Assembly: GCA_013115135.1 (NCBI GenBank)
Contig: JABANP010000013.1
Span: forward strand, 124,001-188,000
Length of the DNA: 64,000 nucleotides
DNA from: Perkinsus olseni
Lineage: Eukaryota; Perkinsozoa; Perkinsida; Perkinsidae
Direction: 5' to 3'
Position numbers and translations under genes: made by a program. Within the stretch, counting starts at the first letter, position 1; every line of letters starts with the position of its first letter. The notes below the pieces were generated by a model. That model had not been told where the DNA came from. It worked only from the letters and a program-made list of their open reading frames with translations, and did not search any database. Below are positions 3,560-64,000 of the stretch, piece after piece.

Positions 3560-6281
3560 AAACACACGGGAGATCATCATCATCTTATGAGAGCCTCCAT
3601 ACACCGTATTATCAGGCCAAGCTTCGACAACAGAAGTTTCTGTGCCTACGAGCAGAGGTGAAACATCGCAGGTCCCCTCGCCAACAGCAGCGCCTACCGC
3701 CGTATCGGATTCTCGGATATTCCGGGAATTGACAAAACTACCGGGATCTTGCTCCAGCCCCTTCAACTCTCGGATGGTTTTACTCAGTAACTCCGTTACC
3801 TCCGGCATACCTGAGTACAACGACAGTGCACGACCTGTGTGCCGCTTCGAATGCTACCACGGATGGAGGAGCTGCTCAGTGAGAGGGCTAGCTCACGTAA
3901 CCAATCCATCTTACAGTCTACTACTGTAACGGTCACATCTTCTGCTGGCCTCCGCAACTGCAATGTTAATGCCTCAACTGAAGGGAGAAGATTCATTGCC
4001 GAGGGAATCCGACCTAGCCTTGAATCCGACCTAGCCTTACTCAATTCGACTTTCAAATCAGGTCGGGTGGAGAGGGGAGCGGTGGTCTTGCCAGGCAGGG
4101 GATGGCTAAGCCACAGCTCAGGTTGTGAAGCAGTCATGTCGAGCAATTCTTGGAGGAGATCCTCATTAGGACGCCGCCGGGAGCCTGGATGGGACTCTGC
4201 CTCCTCGGCCTAAGGGGTACATCAACATTTACAGAGAGGTCCCGCAAAAGTTGGTATGTACACATGCACACTCGACGAGTTTACTTCCTTTAATGTATGC
4301 TTGACGACCGTCTGGAAAGCATCCTCCCATTTTCCTTCACCGACCAGCTTATTCATCTGCCGTCTAACCGCAGCAGAGGACCCTGAAGGGAGATATGTTC
4401 TACCCGAGAATTAAACCAGGATCGCTACCTGGCAGGGTAGGGCTTGACGGGACGCTATCCTTCTGGGCATCGGTGCCTTTCATCGCTCTAATTTCCTGAA
4501 ACGAACGCAGAAGGATTAGAACCAGCGGCCTACCGAATGGAGAACGGGTGAACTACCGCGACACCAGCTTCGCATAGCCAACGGCTCCCGGCAAACTTAC
4601 GTCCTGAAGCTCTCTCATTTGAGCGAGCATCGGCCTTATGACTTGCCCTCGCACTTGCTCAAGTACCTTCATCAACAGTTTGAACTGCCGTAGCAGATGG
4701 AAATCACGACTAGAAGTTACGAAAAATTTGGTATGACCGGACGCACCCGGCTACCTGGTCAGCTATCTCAGCCTCAGATTGGCTGGGAAGGTCAGGCGAG
4801 AGAGCACTCGTGTCGAACTGCCTCGCGAAATCCTCATCCTGAAATAACGACAATCGCCGGGATCGAACTTTCGCGGGTAACAGAGCCTGTTACTTTGTCG
4901 AGAGCTCGTAACTCCTTAACCGCCTCCGCTAGCTGCGAGTCGACTCTGTTGCCCGCGAACTGCTGCTTCCTGAAGATTTCGATAACATCCCTGAGCGGTC
5001 TGAGCTTGCACTACTGAGCAAGGCTGCGAACGCGATCCTCCAAACTTTTGCATTTGCTGGACAACAACGAGATCTGAAACATGGCGGCGTGATGGTAAAG
5101 GTAGGCTGCGAGACGGGTACTGTTTTCTGAGATGAATCCAGGGCTTCGCGGAGTTCCTCCACTTGAGTTGACTGGTCTGCTGTAACCTTCAATCTGGAAA
5201 AAAGGAGGGTATCTTCTGGTTGCACGTGGCAGATACGGAATAGGTCATTACGTTAGAGAGTCCACGCAATCAAGCATGGCCGGCACAAGTCGCTGTCTGA
5301 GCTCATTGGAAAGAGACTTCTCCAACTCGGTGTCCAATGCCGCCTGCAGAGCACTCTTAACCTGAGCCAATACCCCACCTGCTGCTGCTGCCCCCGACCT
5401 AATTCCGATCAAGTCAGCCACACAGCGTCCAACTGGGCCCCGTTCAGTGAAATCACGGAGGAGTGGTATGATTACCAACGAGTAATTTCGACCATATTAC
5501 TATCCCGTTGAGGATGAATTCCGAGCAAGTCAGTCACAGAGCCTTCAACAGGCTGTTGAACAGCTGGTATAATCGATGATGGATGATTTCGACCACACCC
5601 CTATCGGACAGATCTTACCGCGAGGTCGCCTCCCCAACCCTGGATGGGCGTAGTACCTGTCCACTGGACACCGCCTCAGAAGTGCCTCTGTCCATCTCCG
5701 AGGCAATCTTCTTGACAAAAGTCTCATCCATCACCATATGCGCTACGGAACGGTAAATAGTAGCCTGCATGCTTCCAACCAACTCCGCTAGGTGTTCAGT
5801 CGTCTGAGGAGGAGAACTCATGCGTGGATGGAAGCATCGAGCGGACCTCGGCCGTCTTCTCTCCCGTTATCTCAGGCAGCATCTTCGTCTGTATGTCGGT
5901 CTGCAATGCAGCTCTTATCGCTGAACACATCATCATCATAGACAGTCCACCACCCCCTTCCACAATTCGACATGAGTGGATACCGTCTACTATATTATAC
6001 TAACCCATCACCGGCGAAGGGTTGTCTGCATGACTTGGCCCTGTACAGCAGCCCTCCCCTCCACTACCTGGACCATACACTTTCAAAGTATCATAGCTGA
6101 GAGTGTCCTCATCAGAGAGGGTCGCTGGTCGTCCATCATTGAATAGCTTCTTGAAAGTTGGATTGGCTGCTCCTATCTTCTTGTGATGCCCCCGACTGTG
6201 CGAGTGGTGTTCTCCCTCCTTCGATACCACCGCCGCCTCGGGTACTGCTGCTGGTTTGTGCTCGACTTTAGTACTAGACAT
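3560..6281 (-). CDS. EDC4/Ge-1-like C-terminal helical protein (multi-exon)
   Basis: Multi-exon minus-strand gene starting at an ATG near 6281 (MSSTKVEHKP). It continues through exons at about 5935-5830, 5821-5620, 5478-5252, 5193-5090 and 5010-4894, then 4838 down to about 3570. The first exons encode amphipathic helices. A later exon around 4280-4370 reads RRQMNKLVGEGKWEDAFQTV, and the one after ends LLPSVEALTLQL...DCKMDWLRELALSL. This resembles the C-terminal superhelical domain of EDC4 (a decapping scaffold of P-bodies), where an EGK-x-E-x-AF repeat is followed by a KLxWLxELLLxLDP-like stretch. No WD40 repeats are visible, so this is either an EDC4-type protein without that half or another helical protein. 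Exon borders are only partly resolved. Two introns carry repeat or tRNA-like sequence (see 4839 and 5194). Confidence 0.4.
4839..4893 (-). repeat. 55-nt intron with tRNA-like B-box
   Basis: Intron of the EDC4-like gene with GT (complement of 4892-4893) and a TATTTCAG 3' end. It separates exons ending ...LRALDK and starting DEDFARQF. In sense it contains AGTTCGATCCCGGCGATTG, a T-arm/B-box-like sequence. The 3' part resembles that of the intron at 55326-55371. Confidence 0.6.
5194..5251 (-). repeat. 58-nt intron carrying a 26-bp dispersed repeat (antisense copy)
   Basis: Intron of the EDC4-like gene starting GTAATGACC and ending TTTTTTCCAG. Its first 27 bases are the reverse complement of a block (5225-5250) that recurs at 55603-55628 with 25 of 26 identical bases. 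The second copy sits inside a 59-nt intron of an unrelated gene, in the opposite direction relative to the host gene. Confidence 0.7.
5389..5605. repeat. Imperfect tandem duplication of about 110 bp
   Basis: Segment 5389-5505 (AATTCCGATCAAGTCAGCCA ... ATTTCGACCATATTACTATC) is followed by 5511-5605 (AATTCCGAGCAAGTCAGTCA ... ATTTCGACCACACCCCTATC). On the minus strand one copy encodes IIPLLRDF...VADLIGIR; the other could encode IIPAVQQP...VTDLLGIH. This suggests exon duplication inside the EDC4-like gene. Confidence 0.65.
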
Positions 6282-6513
6282 TAATAAATTATATTACTTG
6301 ATATAATAGCATAACAGGGACCGGAGGTAAAGGAGAAGATATTGATCTGCTTCTTCGCCTTCTGTAAAACGCCCGGGTTCGATCCCGGGGTCTTCTATTT
6401 CTCCATCATTTTCCGTGCGTTGGTGGATCTTAGGCTCGATAACGGTAAGGTGGGAAGGTTCAAGTGTATTCTCAGTCAACGTATTCATCTTTCTCCCTTC
6501 GACTTGAGTACTG
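6282..6513. promoter_or_regulatory. Divergent intergenic region with both 5' ends
   Basis: 232 bases between two divergent ATGs (6281 minus, 6514 plus). It must hold both promoters and 5' UTRs. No TATA box is assigned. The tRNA-like element at 6334-6396 lies here. Confidence 0.5.
6334..6396 (+). repeat. tRNA-like hairpin element (acceptor-like and T-arm-like stems)
   Basis: AGAAGAT at 6334-6340 can pair with GTCTTCT at 6390-6396 (7 bp, one G-T). Just inside the 3' arm is CCCGGG-TTCGAT-CCCGGG (6372-6389), a perfect T-arm-like hairpin with an exact B-box. The element is 63 nt. No normal D-arm or anticodon arm could be folded by eye, so it is a tRNA relic or SINE-like piece, not a tRNA gene. 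Confidence 0.5.
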
Positions 6514-8491
6514 ATGGACACCCAAACCGCCGTTAAGAAGGACGACGAGATCGTCGTCGATGGTCAAACAGAAATGGACGATTTATTATTCGCTCAGAAA
6601 ATGGCAGAGGTACTCCCGGAAGGTCATCACAGTTATCGGCTCTCTGGAAGTATACTCTCTCTTCGTTCCATCTTGTTGTTGGTGACAGCTCGTCAGCAGC
6701 TACCGGTCCATCGCTAACCATTTGCTTCACATTACTACTTTGTGGTTGGTATACTCCATTTATGTCGAATTATTGTATTGCCTGCTGGTCAGAGTATCCT
6801 TCTCTTCAGGTTGAGCTCAGAGCTACGCCGAGTAGTGCCCCTTTGAACCCTGTGGCACCCACTTTATTATTGAGGAAAGAGGCACAGTGTCGGGATTATG
6901 ATGATCTGTCTGATGATGACGACAGTGATACCGAGGATAAACAACCTGCCGCCCCACAAGCCCCAGCGACGGAGACGAAGGCCCCTATCACGAAGGAAGA
7001 GGTGAAAGGGCGGATTGTCGGCTCAGTCAGAGATACTCTCAGTATGCTCTTTGCCTCAGGCTGAGAAGCCTCAGAAGGCGGAGGATTCCCTCAGCAAGCC
7101 GGCGGAATATCAAAAGGAGAAGTCGATGTTAGATGCCGTTATAGCCGGGAGCAACTTAGATGTAGCCTGCTCGTCGTACCACTCCTTTCACAATTCTTGC
7201 TGCTGCCGATAGGTTATCGAAGATGATGAATCGGACACTGCCGATGAAGAAGGGGAGACTCTGATCGGTTCGCTTGCTGCCTTGGAGGACACCATTCCCG
7301 CGAGTGAGGAAATTCGGAAAATAGGTACTAAAATATTGGAGTGCCGGATGCTGGGATTTGAACCCGGGTCGGTCGATGGCTGAAGCAGGTACTATCCATT
7401 CCATCGTTGAGAAGTGTATTGTCGTCCGTGGTGATGACATAGCGAGCTCGGATCTCGCCCTGGACGTCGAAAGCGTTCTATGTGACGAGAACCGTAAAGT
7501 CCTGGGCATGATCGTAGAGACCTTTGGTCAGGTAATATCACCAGTCGGGAGAGAATCTTTTCTAGATCAGCTCGAATCCTCGAGTTTGTTTGTGAATTGC
7601 CGAACTGCATTCAAAGATTCTACTTATTTCGAGCGCACGTGGCATATTGGATTCCTCTCCCAGACCGCTGCCCCGATGTATCTGGTGTACCCCAAGAATG
7701 CTGTCGATGAGAGCTGGCCGTTACCCACTCCGGATGCCGTTGGACCCGCAGTGTATGCAGTCGTTAGTCGGATGAAGATGGTCGCTATCGCTGACGACTG
7801 GACGCATGAAGGTGACCAGCTATTGATGGTTATTTCGTGGCGCGTGACGACTACTGCTCAGGTGGTAATGCAATCATGGATGCTGGAGCTGATTCTGATG
7901 ATGAGATGAAGAGCTCGCCGCCTAGAGCCATCACCAATGAGCCCAGCTTTGACGCTGAAGCACATATGCGTGACTTACCGCCCCCTGCAGTCAGCAAGGG
8001 CAAAGGGAAGGGAAAAGGAAAGGGAAAGGGGAAGGGCTCGGGTTCGAACCCCGGCAAGGGTACTTCTGAGGCGTCTGGATATGGCAAGGGTGCATACTGG
8101 GGTGGATGGGAAGCCCCTGCTTGGGACTGGGGTTCACCTATGGGATGGGGTCCACCGCCTCCGGCGTATTATTGGGGTGATTACGGTGGCAAGGGGGGCA
8201 GTCCCCAGGGTAAAGGCAACCCACAAGGCAAAGGGCAGCTGGGGTGGCAAGGGTTATAGCGAAGGGCCGCCTAGCGGTGATTTCGGGAAGGGATGGTATG
8301 AGGGTAAAGGCAACCCGCAAGGCAAGGGCAGTTGGGGTGGCAAGGGTTATGGTGAGGGGTCACCCAGCGGTGATTTCGGAAAGGGATGGTATGGCGGTAA
8401 GGGCAGCGATGATGGCAAAGGTGGCAAAGGCCAACAATGGGGCAACAATTGGTGGAGTGGCGCCCCTCAGCAGAATTGGTGGGGATGGTAA
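6514..8491 (+). CDS. NAF1: NAF1, H/ACA snoRNP assembly factor
   Basis: Seven exons fit one frame: 6514-6609, 6810-7016, 7060-7137, 7213-7324, 7389-7531, 7664-7811, 7862-8491. The core reads TIHSIVEKCIVVRGDD...SVLCDENRKVLGMIVETFGQ...APMYLVYP. This is the Gar1/NAF1 beta-barrel that holds dyskerin/Cbf5 during nuclear H/ACA RNP assembly. An acidic stretch (DDLSDDDDSDTED) precedes it, as in NAF1 rather than Gar1. The tail is rich in Gly-Lys (GKGKGKGKG) and Gly-Trp where animals and fungi have RGG or Pro/Gln-rich sequence. The tail contains a 93-nt direct repeat, and the first copy has one extra base that shifts the frame near 8231, so the last about 85 residues need a shifted frame. That may be a sequencing error, a real break, or an unrecognised splice. 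Confidence 0.78.
7138..7212 (+). repeat. 75-nt NAF1 intron flanked by GTTAT direct repeat
   Basis: The intron starts GTTATAGCC and ends CCGATAG; the next exon starts GTTATCGAAG. GTTAT is therefore repeated at both borders (7138-7142 and 7213-7217). The intron shares TACCACTCCTTTC with an NAA15 intron near 32670. Its reverse strand reads GGAGTGGTACGACGAGC, resembling a tRNA D-arm/A-box. Confidence 0.6.
7325..7388 (+). mobile_element. 64-nt NAF1 intron with 8-bp flanking direct repeat and antisense B-box (introner candidate)
   Basis: AGGTACTA occurs at 7323-7330 across the donor and again at 7387-7394 across the acceptor, so excision restores one copy (I-R-K-I-G-T-I-H reads through). This is the pattern left by insertion with an 8-bp target-site duplication. 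Inside, on the minus strand, lies CCCGGGTTCAAATCCCAGC, a T-arm/B-box-like sequence. Confidence 0.65.
7812..7861 (+). repeat. 50-nt NAF1 intron with TTTCGTGGCGC block (sense)
   Basis: Donor GAAG|GTGACC, acceptor CTCAG|GTGG; AGGTG is repeated at both borders. It carries TTTCGTGGCGC at 7833-7843 followed by GTGACG, the A-box-like repeat also found at 22432, 26595, 29747 and 32349. Confidence 0.65.
8209..8395 (+). repeat. 93-nt direct repeat in the NAF1 tail, first copy one base longer
   Basis: Copy 1 is 8209-8302 (94 nt) and copy 2 is 8303-8395 (93 nt, 31 codons, Gly/Lys/Trp-rich). Copy 1 reads GGCAAAGGGCAGCTGG where copy 2 reads GGCAAGGGCAGTTGG. The extra base changes the reading frame between the two copies. 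Confidence 0.8.
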
Positions 8492-8787: not shown

Positions 8788-11700
8788 TTAGGATTGATTG
8801 TTGCTGTTGTTGTCTGCGACCCTTGTGGCGTGGAAAGCCACGAAACTGAGGGCGTCCGCTGATAAAGTAATCTCATCATCAAGTGATACGGTGGCGAATT
8901 GAGGAGGCAATTGAGGAGTGTCGAAGAGGGACGTCAGTCGCCACGACGAATTGCCGCTGATACCCCACATGTGTCCTGAAGGGCCACTAGGATGACGAGG
9001 GATGTACTCCTCACTCACTCAGGGACGCTCGGGCCTTTCTCGAGAAAGTCCCTGGATTCCGCATTCCGAACACTCCATCGGTGTCGTTGCTTGTAGCCCA
9101 GCCATATCTAATGACACGATCTTGGCGTGCATGAAGCAAGCGTTGAACGCTCACAGCTGCCCTCGCTCTGGGTCACCGCCGATCCACTGAACTTGGCGGA
9201 GAATTGATTGGAACTTGCCATGGAAGCGAACACCATCTGCTAGGATCTTCCAGTGTTCTTTAGTGAGCTCTTCCGGTTGAATGTACCTGACGATGAGACT
9301 CGGGCCGTGCAAACGTGATCGTAGAATCGACTTTTCCCGAGTCCCGGGAGAAGGCAGCTGACCTCTTACAACTCCTGCAGGCCCACTCCACTGAAGAAGT
9401 ACGTTAAAACTTCCGTTTTGAAGGACTTGATGTCTGCTATGCTGTCCTGTAACAACTGAGGAAGGGGCCAATCTACTCAAGTGGTAGTGCCTTCGAGGCC
9501 TACATATCCCGCCTCATTAGCCCGGCTCTGTAGTATCCCATGCAGCATGAGATTCGCTATGGGCATGAGCAGCCCACGCTGGACTACATTTTGGTAGACC
9601 TGCGGACCGGCCATCGACTGAAGCAGAGTACGATGTGGATACGGAAGCATCTCGCTCGGTGATGTGCATATCCCGTCTGTTGCCCCATCCAGCCAGTCCT
9701 ACATCATAGCCGTCTTTCCAAATACCTGACGAGTTGAACAGCATATCAATTTTGTCCAGGAATGCCGTTCCTACTGTCGCCATAGATCAGCCAATAAGGG
9801 CTGGGCCACGTCCCTATGGTAAGGTTAATCCACACGATGCTGCCCTTGCCCCGTCGCCGTATGTCGAGGATCTAACGAGCACTGCTACTACTACGACCAA
9901 CGTCGTGGAAGTCCGCCCCACTCACCAGTTTGAAGAGAGAGTCCACCTCCCCGGCGTACTTGTCCGCACCTTTGCTGAACTGCCCTCCGGCGATCCCGTC
10001 GAATTTGAAAAATACTACCTGAAGGTGATGGCATATCCTCGACCGAAGGCAGGAGACCTACGTTGTCATTCTCGACGAACATCAAGGCTTGGTCGGAGAA
10101 TACCTGAAATGATCAACACCAATCGACGAAGCTTCAATGGTATGATGAGACCTCGGAATACGGAGAACCCCGGCACATCGGGACACGGTCATGAAAGCGT
10201 TGGTACGGCTCTCAAAGGAATCCTGCAGACCATTCGCGATTAATCTCTCTCACTTGAACGCTCTTGTCTCGTAGGCAATATACATCGAAGCCCTACTTAT
10301 TGTGTGAGGTCTAAGGATGGTTCACGTAACGTCGCGCAAATATTCCATCCTCATTGGCGTAGGGAGTCGTGCAGACTAAGGTGGCTATTCCGTTGTGAAA
10401 CGGAGGGTCTACGAGGTTTTAACGTGGGGATACCACTTTCGGTTTGCAGGGAAAATACACCAACTTGGTGGTAATGAACTGGCTGGTGAAAGTTCATGAC
10501 AGGCAACCGAAAGGGAAGTGGGCGTCTGAATCGGGTGCTGTAAGGTCTCGCTCAAGCAGTAGTGCAGTTGAACTTCTATGGTGAAGCTGTTCCACCTTTG
10601 AATATTTCTTTCCAGCTAAAGTGAAGGTCCTCCTTTCCATATCAACTTCATATCCCATCTTCAACCCGTGTAGGACCCTCCTTCGAGATGCTTCCTGGTA
10701 TCTTAACACGATAACATCTTTCATCAAGCTCGCCCGGCCCATAGCTGGATTGGGGGCCATTACTAAATATGAACAACAAATAAGACCAAATCGCACTTTT
10801 AGATGTGCCCCAATTAGCCACATTGGGGGCGGTGAGCGGCGGTCAAGTACTAGCAGTCCATGGACCGGTGGCGAACAAATCCTGCGGCCTCCTCGGGGAA
10901 GCCGTTAACGGTTCTGTACCCTTCGCCGAGGAATACTCATGGACGATTACCCGCCGAAGGGCGACATCCAAACGCCAAGCTTGACGTTATGCTCTTCCTG
11001 AGCCTTCTTCGCCACTTTGCTGAGATCCCCACTCGGGAAGGCTTTCTTGTCAACTCCCCAGAGGGTATCCCAGTCATCCCATCCGTCGTCCAAGAGTACC
11101 CCATCCAGGTGAACCTGATGGACCGTCATGGGGATGCATAAGGTGGAAGAGTAGTCCCGCGGAAAGCCGATGCTCCCTTGCCGTTTGGGTGATTGATGTA
11201 GCCTCGACCCCAACCCACCCCCTCCTCCTCGAGAGCTGTCGCTATGGCACTGATTCGCTGATTGACGTTATCCTCAGTGAACTTCTTAGAGTATTCACAG
11301 TAGGGGTCGCGTCCACCCACCTCCGCGTCGATGCATGGTCTATACCGAAGGTCATACCTGATGGGATGCAGTCGATCACTTCCAGGAGCTAGAGGGCGGC
11401 ATACCAGGTGTTGTAGTGCAGCCAGGAATGGAAAGGGGACGCTCGTATCATCTCAATGTAGTCCGAGAAAGTCCGGAATAGCGAGGATGGCCCCCGGGAG
11501 GGATCGAACCTGAGCAGAATAGTTTCCGTGGGTTAGTGGTTGAGCGAATAAGCCTCCTCCTACTTCCCCACGGCGGCCGAGTATCCGAAGTCGGATATGG
11601 GATGCAGTATGAAACCGGCAGCACGCCGCGACCCCTCCTCGACCACGTTCTTCGCCCGAGGATGCTCAAGCCCGCAGAATAACGATCGTTCAGGGATGAC

Positions 11701-28900: not shown

Positions 28901-29940
28901 CCTGAAGATACCCCAATACTAAAGTCATGGCGTGACCAGCTCTCCCTGTTGAATGAGATGCTGTGCCTCTGATACTGAAACCTCTGACCGCTGTTGCTGC
29001 TGTGGACGTCGATGGGCGAAATGGGGCAAGAATCTTCAGAAGTTGTCTGATAAATCGAGGAAATCTGTGTACATTCATGAGTGGCCCACGTGAAAATGCA
29101 TCCCGTTTCGTATAATGAATAATCCTGCTACTTTATTTACATCAAATATTTGGAAATGGGGACTGGTAAGCTCCAGTCGCTAAAGAGCGCATTTTGTCAA
29201 CGTCAGAAACTGCGAAAATACACAGATCCGATCACACAGGCCACCTCAGCCACCTGTCTGGCGCTGCTACGATCTACTAAACATCCCTGATAGTAGTACT
29301 TTGATCGTTTCCAGTAAATATGACGATAATCAGGCGGGCTCCTCGGCATTATCGGTTTCCATGGTTTATGCCATCTATCCAATCTATGATCCAAATGCCG
29401 GTATGCCACTCCTGCTGGTGCCGTCTCCGGTCGCATTGACAACCCTCTCCTCACTGCTACACCTTCAATAACGAACCTACACCAACTGATGAACGTGATG
29501 ATACTCCACGTGCAACTATCTAGACCCATCCGGAAGCAGTAGACGATGAAGGTTTATGAGGAAGTTTGCCAAACAATTGTATTAGGACTGCAACCTCTCC
29601 GAGGAACGATCGATCAAGATACGATACCCTCGACCTTAGGCACACCTACCTGTCATCCATCGTCAACCGGTTAGTAGTGACGTACGCCGCCATTTGGAGA
29701 GCAGAAGAAGAAAGCACACAACGCCGCAGCCTACTGATGGAAATATTTTCGTGGCGCGCGAAACTCTGCGGCCAAGTGAATTGGCAGGTTCGATCCCGGC
29801 ACCATACATTTTTCCGTCAGTTATTGAGCTGTGGTCGTGCCGCGACCATCAGTGACTTCTCTCCTGAGACCTCTGGGAATATCGTAGCGCTTCCCAAAAT
29901 CCGCTTTCTATCGTCCATAGTGTCCTCGGAATTTCCATAG
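26000..29940 (-). CDS. Large multi-exon hypothetical gene(s)
   Basis: A series of minus-strand exon-like frames with short GT-AG gaps. A first exon may start at ATG near 29,920 (MDDRKRILGSATIFPEVSGE). Others read MIVDARVHVHPCAEAIEPSLRVALIDT (28,800-28,850), RIRVKKAVSTSKPGPWNEVVWVLQVYG (28,130-28,220), RFILMLCPRFADCWMSDDDIEIEYTEFLPH (27,450-27,540), LKLQWLLKLHSAMCEVDYDLCSL (27,240-27,330), and DELVLSLVEPAGQLPV...LVRAVHYYEDKRP (26,640-26,920), joined over a 57-nt intron to GLRILTSFNSS. The style suggests a helical protein but I do not recognise it. It may be more than one gene. It is divergent from NAA15. Confidence 0.4.
26572..26628 (-). repeat. 57-nt intron with sense TTTCGTGGCGC block
   Basis: Starts GTGAGTAAACC and ends GCTTACAG. 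In sense it contains TTTCGTGGCGCAGTGACGG then TATCGCGGC, the fullest A-box-like copy, comparable with GTGGCGCAACGGTAGCGC of the tRNA-Trp genes at 34310 and 35003. Confidence 0.7.
29740..29830 (+). repeat. Longest tRNA-like element: A-box-like block plus B-box
   Basis: On the plus strand TTTCGTGGCGC (29747-29757) is followed 29 bases later by GGTTCGATCCCGGCACC (29787 onward), an exact B-box. It is antisense to the minus-strand gene and probably within its first intron (GTATGGTGCC ... TTTCCATCAG). It links the A-box-like and B-box-like fragments found separately in other introns. Confidence 0.6.
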
Positions 29941-30031: not shown

Positions 30032-33000
30032 ATGGCTACTAGTTCCCTATCACAGCTACCGGCTAAGGACCAGAGCCTCTTCCGGCAGGTAATGATGAGG
30101 GGAGGGGTCGCTGTGGATGTAATATTCAGATGGTGCGGTATTACGAGACTAAACAGTACAAGAAGGGTATTAAGTGTGCTGATCAAATACTGAAGAAAAA
30201 CCCGAAGCATGGAGAGACCGTCTGTATGAAGGCGTTGATCCTCTCCTATGTTAATCCTGAAGATAAAAAGGAAGCTTACGATCTGGTCAAGCAAGGTCTA
30301 TTCTTCGATCTTAAGAGTCACGTCAGTTGGCATGTGTAATACCACAACTTCCCCTAATCGTACCGGCGAGAACGGACAATGATCTCAGGTACGGTTTGAT
30401 GCACAGAGCTGATCGGAATTATCACGAAGCCGCCAAGTGCTACAAGAATGCCCTCAGGATCGACCCTGAGAATCAACAGATTTTGAGAGATCTTTCGATG
30501 CTGCAGGTAACACGTCTCATGAAGTGCGTTGTACTGAGGTGAATTCGATCAGCTCCATCAACGGGATTTGGAGGGCTATACTGAGTCCAGACGGAAGCTG
30601 TTGTCGCTACGATCGTCCCAAAGGATCAATTGGATGGCCTATGCAGTTGGAGAGCATATGCTGGGCAATTATGATGTTGCCAAGACGTTACTGGATTCCT
30701 ATAAGAAGGTAGTATTGTCGGAAGGGTCAAGTGGCCGAACGTCTGTACTCTTCCATTCGTGAGGTCGTTGGTTCGATCCTGCGGAAGGCCTTCTCGCCAA
30801 GCTTCGTTGAGACTCCCTTGCTCGCGGCCTTATCGGACGTTTTATCTATTTTTCATCAGAATTTCGCGGCTGAAGTTTCTGAGGATGCCGACTCGAAATA
30901 CGAGCAGTCCGAGCTCTACCTCTACCAAGTAGTAACGAACTCTCGTCTGTAATTCTCGGTAGCCTCTTCGGTCTACAGGCTTTGCTATTGGAACAAGGCG
31001 GGGAATTGCAGGAGGCGTTGGACATCTTGGAGGAACACAAAAAGTAGTGCAAAAGCGTCCTACCCGTCCATTGAGGAGGCTCGTTTCAAACGCGTCGTTT
31101 GATCCGGCGTAGAGTAGTCTTCGATTCGAAGCGGCTCACCAGGGCTGCACCCCTAACCCCAGACTTGTCTTCGGGCGTCCACTTTGGGGTACGATGAGTG
31201 TGGTAGCATCCTCCTCAGGGAAATTGTCGATGGCACGACGAGATTGGAGAGCATTGCCCGATTGTCGATGAGTTTGGGTAAATTGGATAAGGCCGAGGCG
31301 GCTCTGAAGGAGCTGATCGTCGATTACAACCCGGAACAGGAGAGCTACGTGCTTGCCTGGCTTAGCTGCGTGGAGGGAGGGAAGTAGTACGGGAGGACTA
31401 GATAGTACTTGTCGGGTCGGTTTTACTGTGCATTATTGCGTTAGCAGGTTTTCTCAATTCTGGCCTAGTATAACTTCTAAGGAGTGCTGCTGGCCAGTGA
31501 ACTCGGGTCTGCTTCCCAAGGGCGGTGCTAGGGTAATCTGCCCGGGTTCAATTCCCTGTCGGTGCATTCTTCTGCTCGATTGAACTGTTGTAGGTTCGTG
31601 GATGGTTGCCGAAGCCTGAAGACAGGAAGGTGGCTGCGCCCGTTGACATCGACCTCGCCCCTGAACTGAATGCTGGAAAGAAGGGTATAAGTTATTCGAC
31701 CCGATACGTATCTTACATGATTCAACCTCGGATATTTCCTTAGCTCTTCATGTCAAGGGGGGTTGCAAGGCCCTCTACCGGCCAGCGAGGGAGCTCAGCG
31801 TTGAGGAAGAGCAAGACGTGCTGAGGGCGCTAGATGGCCTCAACGCCGAAGTGAAGAAGGAAACGGGTATGTAGTCTGTTGAAGGGCGGTTTGCGGCGGA
31901 GCGAAGCAACATCTCTGCAGGTTTTGCCTCCGCGACCATTACTAAGTGCGTGCTGTTGTTTTTGACCGGCGAGCGTTTCGAGGCAAGGTTGAAGGAGTAC
32001 GTCACTAAACTCCTTTGCAAGGGAGTACCCTCTACTCAAAAGTAGTGAAAAATCTTTGCAGCAGCAGGCCATCAAGCTAATCCTCGATCAGGTTACTCCG
32101 CGTCTTCTACAAGCAGAGTCCCAGTAAGCAGCTAAGCGTTGATCGTATAGTACGACAATGTCTGGCGGAGGGTGAGGAGTTGATAGCTCTGGCTGAGGCT
32201 CGGTCTGAGGCCTCGACGGCCGCGGACGTACCAAAGGCTCGACAGGAGATATCCAAGCTGCCTCCCACTTACGCGTGCTTCGCCCTCCTCCTCGCAGCGA
32301 ATCACCTCGACCATATTGGCAGTTATGACGCGGCAGTAATACTAATAATTTCGTGGCGCGGTGACGGAGTTCCTTCTTCTCTGTAGATGGCCCAGATTGA
32401 TCGTGGCATGGAAGTTAGCCCTACGTGCATCGACCTTTACGTATCCGCCTCCAAAATGTAATACAGCACCGGGGCGTATCTCCACGCACAGCGAAGAGTA
32501 TCTCAGATTGAAGCATCAAGAACGTTTCGATGAGGCTGCCGAGTACATGAACAAGGCTCGGGAAATGGACCTAGCCGATAGACAATTGAACACGTTGAGT
32601 GTCAAGGCACAGCTAAGGAAGGGTGATATTGATACGGTAATAAATGCGGAGGCGTGCAGATTTCCATCATACCACTCCTTTCGGAAATAGTCGAGGCCTG
32701 ATTTTCTGCTCATTATCGCATGGCATGCAGGCCAACTCCCAAATGATGATGTTCGCTAAGGAGAACGATACGGCTAAGACCTCCAACCTCTACGATATGC
32801 AATGCATGTGGTGGGAGATCAAGACAGCCACGGTTAGTACGGGCGGATGGGGCGGAGCGAAGCGATTATTGTTTGTTCATTTCCATCAGTTATATGAGTC
32901 TCGTGAGGACTACAGCATGGCGTTGAAGCGTTTCAGTGACGTTTTGAAGCAGTTCGAGGACATCCGCGATGATCAGTTCGACTTCGCCACGTATTGCATG

Positions 33001-33905
33001 CGGAAGATGACTCTCAGAACGTACTTAGCATGGCTTGTGATGGTCCCAACGGCAAGGCTGCTGTTGTATCAGGTTTGTGGAATTCCTGAAAACTGAAGAC
33101 AATTTGGAACAGCACATTTACTACCGAGAAGCGAGTGCTGGTATGATAAGGTGTTATACTAAGTTGATGGATAAGAAGGCCAAGGATGCAGCAGAGGCGG
33201 CCAAGGGACGGGCGAACAATGAACAAAATAAAGAAAATGAGTCCAAGGTGGGCGTTGGGGGGATCTCCATCGGGGTCGATGCATTGGAACTATACCCCAG
33301 ATGAGACGGATAGTATCTCAGTGAGAAAGGTGCTTGCACGTATGTGCGCTTCTTCAGTTATCTTCTGCGGAGCGAAAGCGTCTGAAGCATCAGAAGAAGA
33401 GAAAGCAGCACGACCAACAGCAGAATAATACGCAGGATAACTCTAAGAAGCCAGAGGGTGAGACAAGCGGGCGACCCGGGTTTGAATCCTACGGCTCGCG
33501 TTTTAGGAGCATTTGGAATGAAGGCTACCGGTCTCACGATGGAGGAAGAGAGAGCCAAGGGTGATGAACTTGTTGCGGTTGCTGACCCTCTCGAAAAATG
33601 CACTCACATTTGCGAAGTAATAGGTTAGGTTTTTCTCACTTCGTTCGGTAGGTGATTTCTGCGCTCCGCTGTCGCAGGTTTTATCGGAGAAGTGTGGTAC
33701 TTGGCCTGAGACCCAGTCTCTGTGTTTTGACGTGTCCATTCGACGGAAGCAGTGGTTGCAAGCCTTGGCCTGTCTCGAGCGACTGAAGGCCCTGGGAGGG
33801 TCGGTGGCCGAGCAAACGATGAAGCTATCCGAACTAACCAAGGGTGATGAGCTGGAAGGTGTGACAGCGAAGATACTCAAGGAGGAGCTCAGTGCTCTCA
33901 TGTGA
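30032..33905 (+). CDS. NAA15: NAA15, auxiliary subunit of the NatA N-terminal acetyltransferase
   Basis: A TPR-rich protein that anchors NAA10 to the ribosome. ATG at 30032 starts [17 protein letters not shown], as in NAA15 (LPPKENALF). Clear family blocks: [164 protein letters not shown]; a Lys-rich [13 protein letters not shown] stretch; and a C-terminal helix ending SALM-stop at 33903-33905. At least 12 short introns are inferred, including 30089-30129 (41 nt), 30336-30388, 30507-30552, 30709-30859, 30929-30978, 31044-31218, 32336-32386 and 33458-33506. Exons near 31,400-31,740 and 33,600-33,700 are not fully resolved. Confidence 0.9.
30709..30859 (+). repeat. 151-nt NAA15 intron with tRNA-like sequence
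   Basis: Starts GTAGTATTG, ends TTTCATCAG. It contains AAGTGGCCGAACG (D-arm-like) and, 28 bases on, GAGGTCGTTGGTTCGATCC (variable loop plus T-arm-like), in sense orientation and roughly tRNA spacing. Confidence 0.6.
31450..31600 (+). repeat. tRNA-like sequence in an NAA15 intron region
   Basis: GCTGGCCAGTGAACTCGG (about 31,487) looks like a D-arm. CCCGGGTTCAATTCCCTGTC (31,542-31,561) looks like a T-arm. Both are in sense and lie before the TTGTAG acceptor at about 31,594. Surrounding exon borders are unresolved. Confidence 0.4.
32336..32386 (+). repeat. 51-nt NAA15 intron with sense TTTCGTGGCGC block
   Basis: Starts GTAATACTAATAA, ends TTCTCTGTAG, joining HIGSYDAA to MAQIDRGM. It contains TTTCGTGGCGCGGTGACGG at 32349-32367. 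Confidence 0.75.
33458..33506 (+). repeat. 49-nt NAA15 intron with B-box-like motif
   Basis: Starts GTGAGACAAG, ends GCGTTTTAG. CCCGGGTTTGAATCCTACGG sits in the middle. It joins KKPE-G to AFGMKATG. It is the same length and layout as the intron at 36343-36391 in a different gene. Confidence 0.7.
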
Positions 33906-34542: not shown

Positions 34543-37500
34543 TACCACCCAACGGCGTCTTCGATCACGAGGCCGTCGCGGAGTATGCGTGCAAGGAAGG
34601 GCATACCGCAGATGGGCTTGTCCTAGGTAGGCTATGTCGTTGGGAGGAAGTCGGCTACCTGTTATTCTCAGGTCCTCGGAGAGTCCTTTACCGTTGCCAC
34701 ATCAGCGGTCTTTTCCGCCCTGTAAGAGTTGACATAACGGAATGTAGACGAGATAATGGTCGATCGATATGGATCTCTCCGCGGCTCTTCAGGCAAACCA
34801 CTGCGATGCGGAGCTCCCTTTGAGCTACCACACGCGTATCCAACATCACACAAGATCGGAGAGGCGGTGGTATACCCACAGAGGGTGACTAACGCCTTTA
34901 CAATCACACCGTTAGAGGCTTCATCAGGTCAATTATTCGTGTAATGAACACTTCACTGCGAATGGAGAGGACGATGGACCCAGTAAGATGGAGGGGACGA
35001 AGTGACCCCGGCCCGATTCGAACGGACAATCTTCTGATCTGGAGTCAGATGCGCTACCGTTGCACCACAGGGCCTGCTCGCTAGCACAATATAGAGCAAG
35101 ATAGAGGCAGCATATATGTGTTTTCTCTTTCAGAAACAATTAGTATCCAGTGTGGGTCAGATGGAAAGTTCCACCCTTCCTATCCCCTACCACGTTGTCA
35201 ACCAATACACTGTGGCGAGTTCCCAACTGTAGCCAATGCAGAGCCAGTCAAGCACGTTAGTAATTCCAGTATCGTTACCATCGTGCTCCTCAACATTCAA
35301 GCGTGTCAGATCCGACACGTGTCGTCGAGGGTGAGGGTATGGACTTTGTGTGCTTGGATGGGTTCACTGAGCAAACCATGGGCTTTGAAGTCAAATGCAT
35401 CAACGTGAGCTCCGATGGGACTCCCCTACTACCAAGGCTCGTGTTCCCTCAGATCGATGGTCACGTCCAGTGGGACGTCCCTTCCCGAACTCCATGTAAA
35501 GCAGAATTCAATCCTATCGGGGATTATTGGTTCGGTCAGGCGTAGCACGGAAGTGTGGACAACTCGAGAGGTTCCCAGATGCCCATCAAACTTATTTCGG
35601 GGACAACATCACCTACCGTTACCCATCCAAAGTGCCTTTCGCATGTAACAGTTTTTAGTGTCCCTTTGTGGCGGAGAGAAGCCTCTGGTAGGTGCGCCCG
35701 GCTATGCCCTGGGTGGAGACAAGAGCAGGCATGAGTTCACCGCCTCTTGCAGCATATCCGGCATCTGGGAGTACGACAGAGGAAATGACAGATGCGAGCC
35801 CGTCATCTGCGGTAAGGCTCCCCCTGGTAGTGCTCCTCAGCTTCTCATAGCGCTCTCCGTCAAGGTGATATCAATGACGTCCCACACGAGATGAAGCTTT
35901 TCGCCACAGCTGTTATCACGACAAGGGTAGCATAATCAGGCCCTCCCTGCGTCGAATACCTCATGTCTGTAGGTGCTGCGGCTCGGTGATACGATGGAGT
36001 TTGCCTGTGATGAAGGTGGGTCCCTCGCCGTCCACTCGAGTGTGATGGAGGACACCTCCTTCAGGAGCCTTCATCGCGGGCACCAATAGAGAGCACAGCA
36101 CCTACACCATCCAGTGCAGTGCTTCGGGCGACTTCCAGATGGCACCCGGCCATACCGCTGGATGTGAGCTGCTCATCATGAGTGGCCATTGTAGACGACT
36201 TCCGGCTCAGGCATCAAACCGTGCGGTCCGTTGTTACCTATGAAAGGTGGGAAGATAGCCTACCCCCAGGATGTGAGACCCGGCGACGTTCTTGAGAGTC
36301 CGGCTGCAGTCGTGTACGTGTGCAATGAAGGGCACACTTTAGGTGGGCCGAAGGATGCAAGTTCGAATCCCAGGGACTCCATTTCGTTCAGGCGGAAGAA
36401 TGGAAGGCGAAGTAAAATTCGAACAGCAGTGTCATGCGGACGGGAACCTGTCCCCCGAGGCACAGCCGCCCCCGTGCGAGCTCGTCGTAGGTTATTACCC
36501 CCTCAACCGCTACTGCCCACGTTGGCGATGTCAGAAGTGCGGCCGAGCTCCTGAGGTCCCCCATGGGGAGCGATACCCTGGCACCGATGGTGAGTTCAGC
36601 TATGAGGATGAGGTCAAATACACCTGCGAGGAGGGCACCACACACAATGGCCTGTCCCCTGCGAAAGGGGGAGAGGCGGTTCTGGTCGCCAAGTGTAGGT
36701 CGCCTGCGGTCTCGGCAGCTCTGAAGTCGTGCTCAGGCGGGGTACATGGTTGGGGTATCAGGGATAGTCGTGGTCAGTGGTCGAAGCGACCCGTACAGTG
36801 CTCAGCTCCGAGATGTCAAGAGAGGCTTCCCGACATAGTCAATGCGGTGAGATGTTCATGCTGCGCTTTTAGGGCTGCCACTCATCACATCAGGCACCAA
36901 CATCAGACTACAAGGCCGGCGATAGGTTGCTTTTGAACGCTACTGTCCAATACGAATGCAGTCTTGGATACACCCCGAAGACTGAGGTGAACTTCCCCCG
37001 CTCAGCCGGACTCGAGAGGACACTCGTCTGCTGCACAGTCGGGCTTGCCATCCGTTGTGATTATACCGTCCTTAGGGTAAGCTTGGTACGGTAACGTGCA
37101 GCTCCCAAGGCGACTTGACCATAGCGATGGACAACTTTGAATGTGTAGGGTCAATGATCTGCCTCAAGTCTATCATCCAGATATCCTCGGCTAGGTCCCT
37201 CTGGTCTGCCCACTCCTACCGACTATCATGTACCATGGCACGCTAATCGGCCCTGCAGCGAGAGAGTCCTACATGGCAACCCCAAGTGAGCGCTAAGCTT
37301 GCCTCCTACCGAGTCAATGCCGCCGCCTCCACAGGAGTCTACCAATGCCCCGATCGATGGACACCCGATAAAGTAGAAGTGCAGTGTGGCTCCGACGGAC
37401 ACTACCACGCGGTAGGGCCTGACAACTTCCAAATGGGCGATCCGCAGACTACGCGGTGGGTCGTAGCAGAACTGAGCTACTTATGAGCGACCTCCGTCAG

Positions 37501-47308: not shown

Positions 47309-47702
47309 AAATGGAGAATTACGTAAAAGCAGGATTCAGAAGATTGTTAAGCCACAAGACACGAGGCCTGAGAAAGGTTCCTTCAAGGGTGCACTGGGTG
47401 GGCGTTTCGGTACCCTGGGTCTAGAGTTCGGAAAAAGAACTGTAGAGACGTACGGAACAGTATTTCTTCGGGATGATCTTTACGATACAATCGCCTTGTT
47501 TCCGGTGTTCGATGCTTTGGTGGCGGCTGTCTACGCCAAGGACTCTGAAAATCTAGGCAGAGTCTTGATACTACGCCCAGACGAAAAGAAGACAAGAGCG
47601 TCCGAGGGAAGTTCTCCAGGTAAGATACGTCGTGTGGACTGGGAGGGTATGACAAACGTATCGAAGAGTATGTTGAATTATTGGGATGTTCGTAAGAAGT
47701 GA

Positions 47703-50413: not shown

Positions 50414-52508
<2,095 letters not shown>

Positions 52509-54938: not shown

Positions 54939-56424
54939 TCAGTAGCCAGAGGCTACTCTGACTTGATTCGGGAGATCTTCAGGGGACTTCCCCGCGCTAA
55001 ACTCGACGACTAGTTTCATGAACAGATCGACGGTGAGGGTAACATAATCTTCTGTAAAGTCTGCACAGTGTGAGCTGATCAAAAGTCTGGAAAAAAGAGG
55101 TAGTCGAAATGGGTGGCGAGTGTTGAGAATGGCTGCTCACTTGTCAGGTCCGAGACTCCATAGCTTAGAATCCTCTTTGAGCGGTTCGGACTCGAAAACG
55201 TCCATAGCCGCCGCTGCAGGGCCACGATGAGGGGTGCTCAACGCTGTATACAGGGACGACTCATCCACACATACTCCTCTACCAATGGATATGAACACCG
55301 ATGATGGACGCATCAAGGAGAACTCCTAAAATGACACATGCCGGGATCGAACCTGAGCTTTGTAGGCTTACGTGAGAGCCACAGAAGTGTTGGGTATTCT
55401 TTGTGCCAGGGAGGGAGCAAACGAGGAAGTCGGATTCTCGGAACAACTGATGAGAAAAGCGATGTATGACGAATACGGACGCCTGTCAGACCTTGTTCTT
55501 CTCTTCGGGGACTCCAGCGTTGAGCACCTCGTCCGCTAGATCACTACCAGGACCGTCCGGACGATTACGCAAAGCAAGGATCTTCATGCCTACGAGGTTT
55601 GATAATGACCTATTCCGTATCTTCCACGGTTGAGCCAAAGATGGTTACCGAGGGGTCTGCACACCTTGGCCGTCTCCTGGGCTATACTGCCGAATCCAAC
55701 GAATCCAACAGTCTTGCCCCTCACAACAGGCATCTGAAATTTGCGCCAGGTCCTGTCCTTCTGGAGCCTCTGCAGCAGTGGGACTTTCTTATTGAAATGC
55801 AACATGCACATCAGAGAATACCTGCCATCATCAGCAGCAACATGAACAGTCCATAAACCGCCACCATCCTCGTTACTCTGCCAAACTCTTGGAGAATGCT
55901 CCACGGGCATTAGTCAGGCATACCTTATCGGCAAGGTTATTGGAGACAAGGGCAGGGACGAGATTGTCAACACCAGCCGATAGTGAATGAACCCACGAAA
56001 GCTTATCCGTACCATAATGCTGCAGTACACTCTGAAAAGCACAACAAAAGAATAGGGCAAATTACGGTACGGAGAGACGATAAAAAACGTGGTGGGCGTC
56101 AAACCCCCGACCAAACGAGATGGTGTTCCTTTTGTCTGACCTACCGCAACAAGCTGTGAATCTCCGGCAGCCCAGAGGACCATACACTTCTTATCGTCAG
56201 GCAACTGAGGCAGCTGGGCAGTGAACTGTTCAAGCGTGTTACCGAATCTAACATCAGTGAGTGATGGGGGATATGTACACTGCGGCGACGGCTGCTGCTG
56301 CTGCTGTCTACACTGAAGAGACTCCTAGACGGCTGAAGGCTTTGGAAGCTTCCTCTTCATACATGCCATCTTCACGTTGCACAACCAATACCAAAACATT
56401 ATCACAGGACACACTCGACACCAT
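54939..56424 (-). CDS. Glyoxylate/hydroxypyruvate reductase (D-2-hydroxyacid dehydrogenase)
   Basis: Start ATG 56422-56424 (MVSSVSCDNVLVLVVQREDG); exons join through FGNTLEQFTAQLPQLPDDKKCMVLWAAGDSQLV, KLSWVHSLSAGVDNL (substrate loop), CLTNARGAFSKSLAEY, MLHFNKKVPLLQRLQKDRTWRKF, VRGKTVGFVGFGSIAQETAKVCRPLG (Rossmann GxGxxG), MKILALRNRPDG, ESDFLVCSLPGTKNTQHF, MRPSSVFISIGRGVCVDESSL, AAMDVFESEPL, LLISSHCADFTEDY, and end NQVRVASGY. The usual Arg in the INIGRG block is present (ISIGRG); the catalytic His is in SSHCADF. It reduces glyoxylate or hydroxypyruvate with NAD(P)H. Introns include 55326-55371 and 55590-55648, both with tRNA-like or repeated sequence. Confidence 0.85.
55326..55371 (-). repeat. 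46-nt intron with exact B-box
   Basis: Starts GTAAGCCTACAAAG, contains CAGGTTCGATCCCGGCATGT in sense, ends TCATTTTAG. The 3' half resembles the introns at 4839-4893 (GTTCGATCCCGGCGATTGTC) and 62794-62854 (CGGCATGTG). Confidence 0.7.
55590..55648 (-). repeat. 59-nt intron sharing 26 bp with the intron at 5194-5251; spliced-leader-like 5' end
   Basis: Sense starts GTAACCATCTTTGGCTCAAC, then CGTGGAAGATACGGAATAGG, and ends CCTCGTAG. The 26-bp block at 55603-55628 matches 5225-5250 at 25 of 26 bases, but there it is antisense to its gene. The first 19 bases differ by one base and one insertion from the dinoflagellate/Perkinsus spliced-leader consensus as I remember it. Confidence 0.65.
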
Positions 56425-62207: not shown

Positions 62208-62258
62208 GTACTGAACAATACAAAACTAACAAGGATGCTGTCATAACGACAACAACAC

Positions 62259-62294
<36 letters not shown>

Positions 62295-62734: not shown

Positions 62735-64000
62735 TCAACCGCCCATTTGCTCATCCTCATCCGCCGCCGCAGGATCGATCGGCTGGCCGAATTCTGAAAC
62801 CATCACATGCCGATACTAGGAATCGAACCGGGGACTTCTCGAGACCACTATTACCCTGCTCCCATTTGCCTAGATCCTCATAAAGCCTTATCCACTTCTC
62901 TTTGAAGACTTTGATAGCTGCCATCACGATGTCCTCTGGTGGTCTTGCGCCAGTCGACTCAACAGTAAAGTGAACCTGCGAATGTTCAGGTCTGGGCCAA
63001 CTGGAATAAATTCGACGATGAACCCACCACATCAGTCCTTTGCTTCACCGTAATCATGCCCTTGGCTTGGAAGTCATAGTTCGCCCTAGTTACACATTCA
63101 TCGCAAAAACTGAGAGTTGGAGAACTTGAAATCTTGCGGATCCTCAACGCTGCCTTACTCGCAGAGATCCTTTCTCACCACTTGAATACGATCGGCTGCA
63201 TCCAAGTCTAATACCCTCTTCGGACATGATCTCACCACAGCTTTCCTTTGGGCCACCGATAACTTCTCGTACTCTATCGCTCTATCTATCGTTATCACAG
63301 GCTCATACTAACGATGATAGTAATAAGCAAGGTCAAACTCGAAGGGGAAAAGTTATTACTCTGATGGCAACGGTGCCGGTAGGATTCCATTTAGCGTGCA
63401 TTTTACCAACACCCTTCCGTGCCTCCATGTGCATCGTCAATTGCTGATTCCTTCGCAGTTTAGCGATAACAATACCATTACGTCTCTGCGAAGGAGACAA
63501 TAGCCAAGAGGTACCGACAACGGCAACACTACATTCTCCTCCTCAGTTTTGCTCCTGTCCCATAATGGGACTGGCAGAGGCCTCCTAGATTCGGGGATCG
63601 ATGTACCTACCGATACCATACCATTCCCTACTAATGATGAGTGCAGCTTATATTTTTATTACCCTGGTCTACTGGCTGAATATCTAAATGCGTGACATCT
63701 GTTACACCATGGTCCTCTGCTATAACATCCAACGTGTATCTGTATTATTGTTGCTAGTACCCTTACCGTCGTTCACGTCTCAACTTACTTGACGGTACAG
63801 TTGGGACAGGAGGAATAACATTGACAATCTTTGGGGTCACTATAGCTGTCCACTTCCTTCGAGTTGATCGGCAGTAACCCCAACCGATGGGCTATGAACT
63901 ACAGAACAACCCATGGGAGCACTTCAAGATGAGCCGGGATGCAACTAATACTACCTCGTCAAAGAGAGGACTGCTATTCTCCTCAATCGTAACCGTATCA
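62735..64000 (-). CDS. RPB3: RNA polymerase II subunit RPB3 (5' end beyond window)
   Basis: Minus-strand exons read DTVTIEENSSPLFDE, FIAHRLGLLPINSKEVDSYSDPKDCQCYSSCPNCTVK, YTLDVIAEDHGVTDVTHLDIQPVDQG, LDLDAADRIQVVRKDLCE, CDECVTRANYDFQAKGMITVKQRTD, VHFTVESTGARPPEDIVMAAIKVFKEKWIRLYEDLGKWEQ, and EFGQPIDPAAADEDEQMGG-stop (62735-62737). FIAHRLGLxP, the Cys-rich loop and the VESTG-x-x-PE helix are hallmarks of RPB3 in the Rpb3/Rpb11 (alpha-like) dimer; the DPKDCxC..CPxC Zn loop favours RPB3 over RPAC1. The first exon lies outside the window. The last intron carries a B-box. Confidence 0.9.
62794..62854 (-). repeat. 61-nt RPB3 intron with exact B-box
   Basis: Starts GTAATAGTGGTCTCGAG, contains CCCGGTTCGATTCCTAG in sense, then CGGCATGTG, and ends GGTTTCAG. 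The 5' part ATAGTGGTCTCGAG is D-arm-like, so almost the whole intron reads as a shortened tRNA. Confidence 0.75.

What the first reader, a model, noticed from the sequence alone, without database searches (positions are those of the whole stretch)
4839..62854. A family of short introns built from tRNA-like (Pol III A-box/B-box) sequence: candidate tRNA-derived introners
Seen in sequence: B-box/T-arm-like motifs lie inside introns whose borders are fixed by protein homology in NAF1, NAA15, LENG8, RPB3, DUS3, GHPR and others (4839, 7325, 24102, 30709, 33458, 36343, 40716, 41188, 53761, 55326, 62794). By my count GGTTCGANNCC occurs exactly six times on the two strands (6376, 8041, 11500, 29787, 55343, 62819), where about 0.5 is expected by chance. 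Several introns also show D-arm-like sequence 5' of the B-box at tRNA-like spacing. Established: introners (elements that create introns on insertion) are known in several protists, including dinoflagellate relatives and Parvilucifera. Inference: here a tRNA-derived, SINE-like element is being turned into spliceosomal introns.
Basis: partly seen in the sequence, partly recalled or inferred. Interest (0 to 1): 0.92.

Follow-up and report, generated by a model that had tools for sequence, protein, structure and literature searches.

The report
Introns made from tRNA-like repeats
In a sampled part of this Perkinsus-like protist genome, about one in fifteen predicted short introns (18 of 277, where two or three are expected by chance) carries the T-arm of a tRNA-like repeat, in either orientation; such repeats likely inserted into coding exons and became introns at once, which would add a tRNA-derived source to the known ways genes gain introns.

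Summary
GGTTCGANNCC occurs 8 times at 7 places in the window, against 0.58 expected, but only two of those places lie in short tRNA-like introns. In 264 kb, 18 of 277 predicted short introns contain a T-arm (6.5%; 0.8% in shuffled introns). The intron is the 3' half of a tRNA-like sequence: it usually starts between the anticodon loop and the variable loop, and a T-run most often begins right after nucleotide 73. In sense introns AG follows, so a Pol III-type terminator likely serves as the polypyrimidine tract. Alignments to solved proteins (TOR, two SNF2 helicases, a DEAD-box helicase, an AGC kinase) show conserved domains cut cleanly. One ammonium-transporter intron is absent from three paralogs, without an alignment gap. 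Lengths equal those of other short introns, so insertion into older introns is unlikely. Against: no empty site in 23 close copies, no insertion scar in sense introns, no T-stem covariation, no RNA data. Best reading: introners built from 5'-truncated, tRNA-derived repeats.

The parts
4839..4893 (-). 55-nt sense tRNA-like intron (T-arm, TTATTTCAG end)
   Evidence: Predicted by the self-trained gene finder; T-arm score 7.2, added by eye; used to build model R1, so its E = 1.9e-4 is not independent
7325..7388 (+).
   Evidence: Gene finder; T-arm score 17.8; 8-nt direct repeat
33458..33506 (+).
   Evidence: Gene finder; T-arm score 4.7, added by eye; R1 E = 1.1e-6, not independent
36343..36391 (+). 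49-nt sense tRNA-like intron in a CCP/sushi-like gene (named by eye)
   Evidence: Gene finder; T-arm score 3.0 on the other strand, added by eye; R1 E = 2e-7, not independent
55326..55371 (-). 46-nt sense tRNA-like intron, ...GGTTCGATCCCGGCATGTGTCATTTTAG
   Evidence: Gene finder; T-arm score 12.5; also listed by the genome pattern search (C35:179325)
62794..62854 (-). 61-nt sense tRNA-like intron in RPB3-like gene
   Evidence: Sequence read; T-arm score 13.2; R1 E = 4.8e-5, not in the training set. The gene finder called a 618-nt intron here. A PDB search gave weak RPB3-type matches (E 0.05-0.1) for the upstream exon; its downstream part was typed one base short and so out of frame, so the junction itself is untested
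30758..30797 (+). borderline tRNA-like element in NAA15-like gene with A-box-like sequence (recalled motif) about 40 nt upstream; intron borders not settled
   Evidence: R1 E = 0.016; sequence
31533..31573 (+). tRNA-like element inside a predicted 415-nt intron of the NAA15-like gene (possibly a shorter missed intron)
   Evidence: R1 E = 0.0019, not in the training set
29747..29814 (+). non-genic copy with TTTCGTGGCGC and, about 40 nt on, GGTTCGATCCC...CATTTTT: possible longer form of the element
6364..6404 (+). tRNA-like element upstream of the NAF1-like coding sequence
   Evidence: R1 E = 3e-8, not in the training set
11482..11522 (-). tRNA-like element outside predicted genes
   Evidence: R1 E = 1.3e-4, not in the training set
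8029..8069 (+). tRNA-like element in a predicted Gly-rich exon of the NAF1-like gene (exonised copy or chance)
   Evidence: R1 E = 9.6e-9, not in the training set
   Evidence: R1 E = 0.0054, not in the training set

Best explanation
A subset of the 42-72 nt introns predicted in this genome consists of the 3' half of tRNA-like repeats (variable loop, T-arm, 3' acceptor strand, T-run), and these repeats likely created the introns by inserting into coding exons in either orientation. Shown by sequence: 19 of 25 sense introns start at positions equivalent to tRNA nt 31-42; the T-run starts most often right after nt 73, and AG follows; the same segment with a recurring T-rich tail (CATTTTTCTGTATTTTTTAG-like) occurs in unrelated genes; orientation is balanced (10 sense, 8 antisense). 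Inferred: a Pol III-type transcript was copied with loss of its 5' part and inserted into exons. In the sense orientation the variable or anticodon-loop region (GTAGGTC, GTAAGC) gives the 5' splice site, and the terminator T-run plus C/TAG gives the polypyrimidine tract and 3' splice site. In the antisense orientation GT comes from the boundary beyond the T-run, perhaps from a target duplication, and AG from the antisense of the anticodon-arm region. Splicing from the start would keep the protein intact, so insertions in genes survive. Afterwards the copies decay like ordinary intron sequence.
For: Enrichment: T-arm score 8 or more in 18 of 277 short introns versus 0.8% of dinucleotide shuffles, 1.1% of CDS and 1.4% of non-genic pieces. 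Without any tRNA assumption, counting 10-mers recurring in introns brings GGTTCGATCC and its overlapping words into the top ten. Genome-wide: B-box followed by TTYAGG 150 times versus 11 for the pattern read backwards, and 87 with AG swapped to GA, 31 of those in one contig array (my count of its list; the 150 also hold arrays, 9 entries on C41 and C270 among the 100 listed). Geometry: of the 87 distinct strings among the 100 listed, the first T-run starts at the position after nt 73 in 46 (13 have no run); A73 60%, C72 66% (one search had 79 of them). Shared by unrelated genes: intron-limited BLAST matches, e.g. 87% over 46 nt and 86% over 44 nt, with flanks unlike. Junctions fit protein homology: TOR, seven sites within aligned blocks; ISWI-like SNF2, DEAD-box helicase, AGC-type kinase, second SNF2 helicase LLTG|TPIQNN antisense. 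Presence/absence: ammonium transporter C58 has the 46-nt intron; three paralogs (61-69% identity) align across the site without a gap; a distant SNF2 paralog on C113 (41%) reads across the ISWI-like site without a stop. Length: median 50.5 nt versus 51 nt for the other 259 short introns (p 0.98), so the element is the intron and not an addition to one.
Against: No empty site: 24 of 30 joined-exon sites were searched; nine had further copies, 23 in all, and every one keeps the intron; the last six sites are single-copy. T-stem pairs do not covary and are paired no more often than shuffled (67.9% vs 71.6%). No target-site duplication in 28 sense introns; weak in 10 antisense ones (p 0.01-0.02, one 8-nt repeat). 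The three intronless ammonium-transporter paralogs could be cDNA-derived copies, so loss is not excluded. Acceptor positions 66-69 are nearly random in the pattern hits, which fits several sources or long decay. Scores are bimodal: no excess between 2 and 8, so there is no sign that the other introns are decayed members. Of the 51 model places at E <= 0.01, the 18 in predicted short introns are exactly the 18 training introns; the 33 independent ones carry labels long intron (15), exon (10) or non-genic (8), and only some of these read by eye as missed short introns. Of the 40 pattern-hit loci fetched, 19 were judged introns by eye; the rest are repeats, non-genic or unclear. Intron borders are predictions; no transcript data. 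Nine of the 18 curated introns in the sample lie in one gene (TOR), so independent genes are fewer than introns.
Confidence: 0.66

Rival explanations
1. tRNA-derived repeats landed in introns that already existed, and deletions later trimmed those introns to about 50 nt, leaving mostly repeat.
For: All 23 further close copies share the introns, so they are not very recent; 33 of 51 model places are not in predicted short introns.
Against: T-arm introns have the same length as other short introns (50.5 vs 51) and lie almost wholly within tRNA coordinates plus tail; the ammonium-transporter site has no intron in three paralogs.
Confidence: 0.16
2. Pieces of ordinary tRNA genes or pre-tRNAs were captured at chromosome breaks, one by one, with no mobile family.
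For: Acceptor positions 66-69 vary as if from many tRNAs; no target duplications in sense introns.
Against: A shared non-tRNA tail with two T-runs recurs in introns of unrelated genes; T-stems do not show the compensatory changes expected of many intact tRNAs; density is high, 51 model places at E <= 0.01 in 264 kb, 18 of them training introns.
Confidence: 0.12
3. The B-box/T-arm is kept by selection in introns, for example as a TFIIIC-binding or splicing-enhancing element.
For: The B-box is the best conserved part in the alignment, though that part was also the search criterion.
Against: Among 32 sequences of nine gene sets the T-arm changes about as fast as the rest of the intron (5.9% vs 7.0%; exons 3.7%) (part of the T-arm value comes from misaligned indels in one set).
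Confidence: 0.04
4. Chance B-box matches plus gene-finder artefacts.
Against: Enrichment over shuffles, CDS and non-genic sequence, genome-wide 150 versus 11, and conserved protein domains restored when the segments are left out.
Confidence: 0.02

Closest known systems
Introners ('Transposable elements drive intron gain in diverse eukaryotes', 2022, PMC9860276; section 7 and passages read)
   Same: Short repeats shared by introns of unrelated genes, repeat limited to the intron, splice sites at or near the element ends; families with and without target duplications, and families that take both splice sites from the target, are described there.
   Different: Most reported families fit DNA transposition; the words tRNA and Perkins do not occur in the main text. 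Here the unit is a tRNA 3' half with a T-run and occurs in both orientations.
Amoebophrya introner elements (2021, PMC7789003; passages read)
   Same: Intron-borne repeats in a parasitic relative of dinoflagellates.
   Different: Those have inverted and direct repeats and non-canonical splice sites; these have predicted GT-AG borders and a tRNA-like core.
tRNA-derived SINEs (recalled)
   Same: B-box, tRNA-like core, T-run, thousands of copies by rough extrapolation; a separate repeat of about 255 nt here (L089-L092) has a tRNA-like T-arm, a similar T-rich stretch and an (AACG)n tail.
   Different: Intronic copies lack a recognisable A box, the SINE body and the tail; no LINE partner was looked for.

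Membership tests
introner | similar sequence in introns of several non-homologous genes | tested here: met
   Intron-limited BLAST matches among DEAD-box, kinase and other loci (names lipase-like and DnaJ-like for L056 and L058 are by eye)
introner | repeat ends coincide with intron ends | tested here: met
   T-run at a fixed tRNA position with AG just after it; exons conserved up to GT where alignable
introner | present in one copy of a gene and absent from relatives at the same site | tested here: inconclusive
   One clear case (ammonium transporter, three intronless paralogs); 0 of 23 close copies in nine sets lack it; distant DEAD-box paralogs cross the site but align with gaps; one distant SNF2 paralog crosses it
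introner | target-site duplication or terminal inverted repeats (in some families) | tested here: inconclusive
   None in 28 sense introns; weak signal in 10 antisense introns; inverted repeats not tested
introner | spliced by the spliceosome | not testable with these tools
   No transcript data; borders GTRRG...YAG and the protein reading frame fit
tRNA-derived SINE | B box | tested here: met
   GGTTCGA(T/A)(C/T)CC in alignment A1 (15 of 33 rows were found by that motif)
tRNA-derived SINE | A box and full tRNA-like head | tested here: not met
   No tRNA match in introns of the window by ARAGORN or Rfam; 20 of 25 sense introns begin after nt 26
tRNA-derived SINE | 3' tail shared with a LINE, target-site duplication | tested here: inconclusive
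   (AACG)n tail only in the separate 255-nt repeat; LINE not searched; duplications weak
functional tRNA gene | complete cloverleaf with compensated stems | tested here: not met
   T-stem 67.9% paired versus 71.6% shuffled; outer pair formed in 12 of 33

The most novel reading that the evidence does not exclude
A Pol III-transcribed tRNA-derived retroelement is an introner: 5'-truncated copies of its 3' half insert into exons in either orientation and are ready-made introns, the Pol III terminator doubling as the polypyrimidine tract and the tRNA variable or anticodon loop as the 5' splice site. With two further intron-linked repeat cores (TTTCGTGGCGC, GCGGAGCGAAGC) it would have remade gene structure across a Perkinsus-type genome.
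Probability: 0.45. Interest if true: 0.87.

Novelty: new variant of a known kind. Interest (0 to 1): 0.72.

Why it matters
Where new introns come from is a long-standing question. Known introners are mostly tied to DNA transposition. A tRNA-derived source would link Pol III retroelements to intron gain, explain how a terminator can supply a 3' splice signal, and give a small, culturable parasite genus in which gain can be dated by comparing species.

Tried and rejected
Whole-tRNA searches in the window's introns gave nothing. Covariation of the T-stem, expected if many intact tRNAs were the source, was tested and not found. Close gene copies were searched for empty sites without success, and a protein search for a second copy of the window gene with the 36343 intron found only itself. 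A slower rate for the B-box was tested and not found. The idea that the other short introns are decayed members was tested: no excess at intermediate scores. A link of the TTTCGTGGCGC core to a downstream B-box was tested in the 16 sampled places: 1 of 16. The first gene finder was replaced by one with an explicit length distribution; it still merges neighbouring genes (the TOR model runs into a cysteine-protease-like gene). A first strict T-arm count gave 45 vs 24.5 and 8 vs 3.3 and was superseded. The spliced-leader core was absent from the 98 loci held before the genome search found it. The curated set of 33 introns for alignment A1 dropped five of the 18 score-passing introns as likely false hits (C13_8218; C35_55931, 104382, 33031, 37867), added five lower-scoring ones by eye (52664, 54867, 104838, 133457, 136342), and relabelled 49148 from antisense to sense by eye; names such as C35_54332 are 0-based offsets in a join that starts at C35:24001 (C13:250001 for C13). 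The other 15 of the 33 came from a search that required GGTTCGANNCC and TTYAGG, so conservation of those letters there is by selection, and the common-prefix excess of sense introns is discarded for that reason; the antisense excess there (2.5 vs 0.81, 0 of 4000) uses a looser null than the within-class test I quote. L046 (97 nt) and the copies L055, L059, L063 were left out of the 33. Paper searches were seen as listings only, apart from the three papers named.


Full report
What the window is. The window is C35:124001-188000 of an unnamed 61.5-Mb genome in 968 contigs. A spliced-leader exon of Perkinsus type (CCGTAGCCATCTTGGCTCAAG; pattern recalled) has 183 matches with up to 2 mismatches, control 0. 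PMC3101222 (passages read) states that Perkinsus marinus SLs have TCTT or TCT where dinoflagellates have TTTT, and that introns there are 39-1622 nt, most under 100. So this is a Perkinsus-type genome by inference. I could take 264 kb of it as a sample (window, 100 kb next to it, 100 kb of C13), which is not a random draw.

Introns. A self-trained gene finder (improved) gives 463 introns in the 264 kb with a strong peak at 40-60 nt, donors AG|GTRRG and acceptors mostly YCAG. It still misses and merges introns and genes, so intron counts are approximate.

The observation. GGTTCGANNCC has 8 matches in the window against 0.58 expected. In 264 kb, 39 T-arms reach a score of 12 against 9.3 in shuffled sequence; 11 of the 39 lie in the 14.9 kb of short introns. 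By intron, 18 of 277 short introns reach a score of 8, against 0.8% of shuffled introns, 1.1% of CDS pieces and 1.4% of non-genic pieces. A model built from 33 curated introns finds 51 places at E <= 0.01 in 264 kb. The 18 in predicted short introns are the 18 training introns of the sample. The 33 others carry gene-finder labels long intron (15), exon (10) or outside genes (8). Some of these read by eye as missed short introns (for example the SNF2 site below), some are the two copies of a duplicated block of C13, and one is a tRNA-Trp gene. Scaling to 61.5 Mb suggests on the order of 10,000 places, a rough extrapolation.

Anatomy. The genome pattern search lists 100 of its 150 hits, 87 distinct. 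In these the positions after the B-box follow tRNA geometry: nt 72 is C in 66%, nt 73 A in 60%, and the first T-run starts at the next position in 46 of 87. AG follows soon (35 of 87 at 28-30 nt from the B-box start) or after a second T-run (11 at 40 nt). In tRNA numbering, 25 sense introns begin between nt 11 and 42, 15 of them at 31-37 and four at 40-42, and end at 79-93; eight antisense introns begin at nt 12-32 and end at 72-91. So the intron is mostly the 3' half. Exons are conserved up to the GT where they can be aligned, so no 5' half is hidden in them. T-stem pairs are paired in 67.9% of cells against 71.6% shuffled, without covariation. These are not intact tRNAs.

Genes. Aligned to mTOR, the sites at DIR|FSVF, ITQ|ALND, SPR|YTSL, NVQ|DTRS, RRQ|AIRA, ESK|VYMG and ELR|TLVV fall inside matched blocks. 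An ISWI-like SNF2 gene, a DEAD-box helicase, an AGC-type kinase (DHQ|GHVK) and a second SNF2 helicase (LLTG|TPIQNN, antisense) give the same picture. The RPB3-like junction in the window was not tested, through a typing slip.

Gain. The ammonium transporter on C58 carries a 46-nt sense intron at VLG|TMILWFGW. Three paralogs (C112 twice, C33; 61-69% identity) align across the site without a gap in open frames of 310-532 aa. By eye the same C58 gene has further short introns, among them another tRNA-like one and one with the TTTCGTGGCGC core. The paralogs might be intronless through cDNA, so this is strong but not final. Among close gene copies (23 further copies in nine sets) none lacks the intron, so the insertions predate those duplications. 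Within these sets introns differ by about 6-7% and exons by 3.7%; the T-arm is not clearly slower than the rest.

Insertion scars. Antisense introns share more letters between intron start and next exon than permuted pairs (2.4 vs 1.93 within class, p 0.01, n = 10), best at window 7325 (AGGTACTA on both sides). Sense introns show nothing (n = 28). Known introners include families with and without target duplications and families that take both splice sites from the target (PMC9860276, section 7).

Other cores. Counting 10-mers in introns without assumptions also brings up GCGGAGCGAAGC (18 of 24 occurrences in predicted introns) and TTTCGTGGCGC (13 of 16). They may be further introner families; the second looks A-box-like (recalled motif), but only 1 of 16 has a B-box downstream.

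Literature. Searches for introner with tRNA-derived, and with Parvilucifera, gave 0 papers. Introner with Perkinsus gave one, about Amoebophrya, using Perkinsus for comparison. The 2022 survey's main text does not contain tRNA or Perkins. The library lacks most subscription papers and preprints, so absence there is weak evidence of novelty.

Verdict. tRNA-like introns are real here, and insertion into exons is the best explanation for those examined. The retroelement step, the source RNA and the time of gain are inferred. On rechecking, confidence was set down from 0.68 to 0.66, because the model's independent places do not fall in predicted short introns.

Noticed in passing
264-kb sample, e.g. 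window 7833-7843, 22432-22442, 32349-32359 (+): Core TTTCGTGGCGC (often TAATTTCGTGGCGCGTGACG) occurs 16 times, 13 in predicted introns (9 sense, 4 antisense), some of them 44-56 nt long: likely another intron-linked repeat family.
   Followed up: partly
264-kb sample, e.g. window 31896-31907 (+): Core GCGGAGCGAAGC occurs 24 times, 18 in predicted introns.
   Followed up: partly
L089-L092 (C105, C440, C357, C88), also L053 and L062: About 255-nt repeat starting ACTAGGCCTTCG, four copies 96-99% identical and two at about 85%, with a tRNA-like T-arm, an internal T-rich stretch and, in at least two copies, an (AACG)n tail: a probably recent SINE-like element.
   Followed up: partly
window 5225-5250 and 55603-55628: A 26-nt stretch, 96% identical in opposite orientation, in predicted introns of two different genes.
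   Followed up: no
window 34310-34381 and 35002-35074 (-): Two tRNA-Trp genes, 96% identical, the only whole tRNAs found in the window.
   Followed up: no
window 24779-24837: Perfect 29-nt inverted repeat with a 1-nt loop.
   Followed up: no
window 46028-47702 and 48096-49817: Tandem pair of related genes of unknown function.
   Followed up: no
C137:48923-79924: 31 listed B-box hits, most spaced about 653 nt apart, probably a tandem array.
   Followed up: no
L009:8922-8962: In an AAA-ATPase-like gene (named by eye) the predicted 3' splice site falls just before the B-box, so part of the element seems to be read as exon.
   Followed up: no
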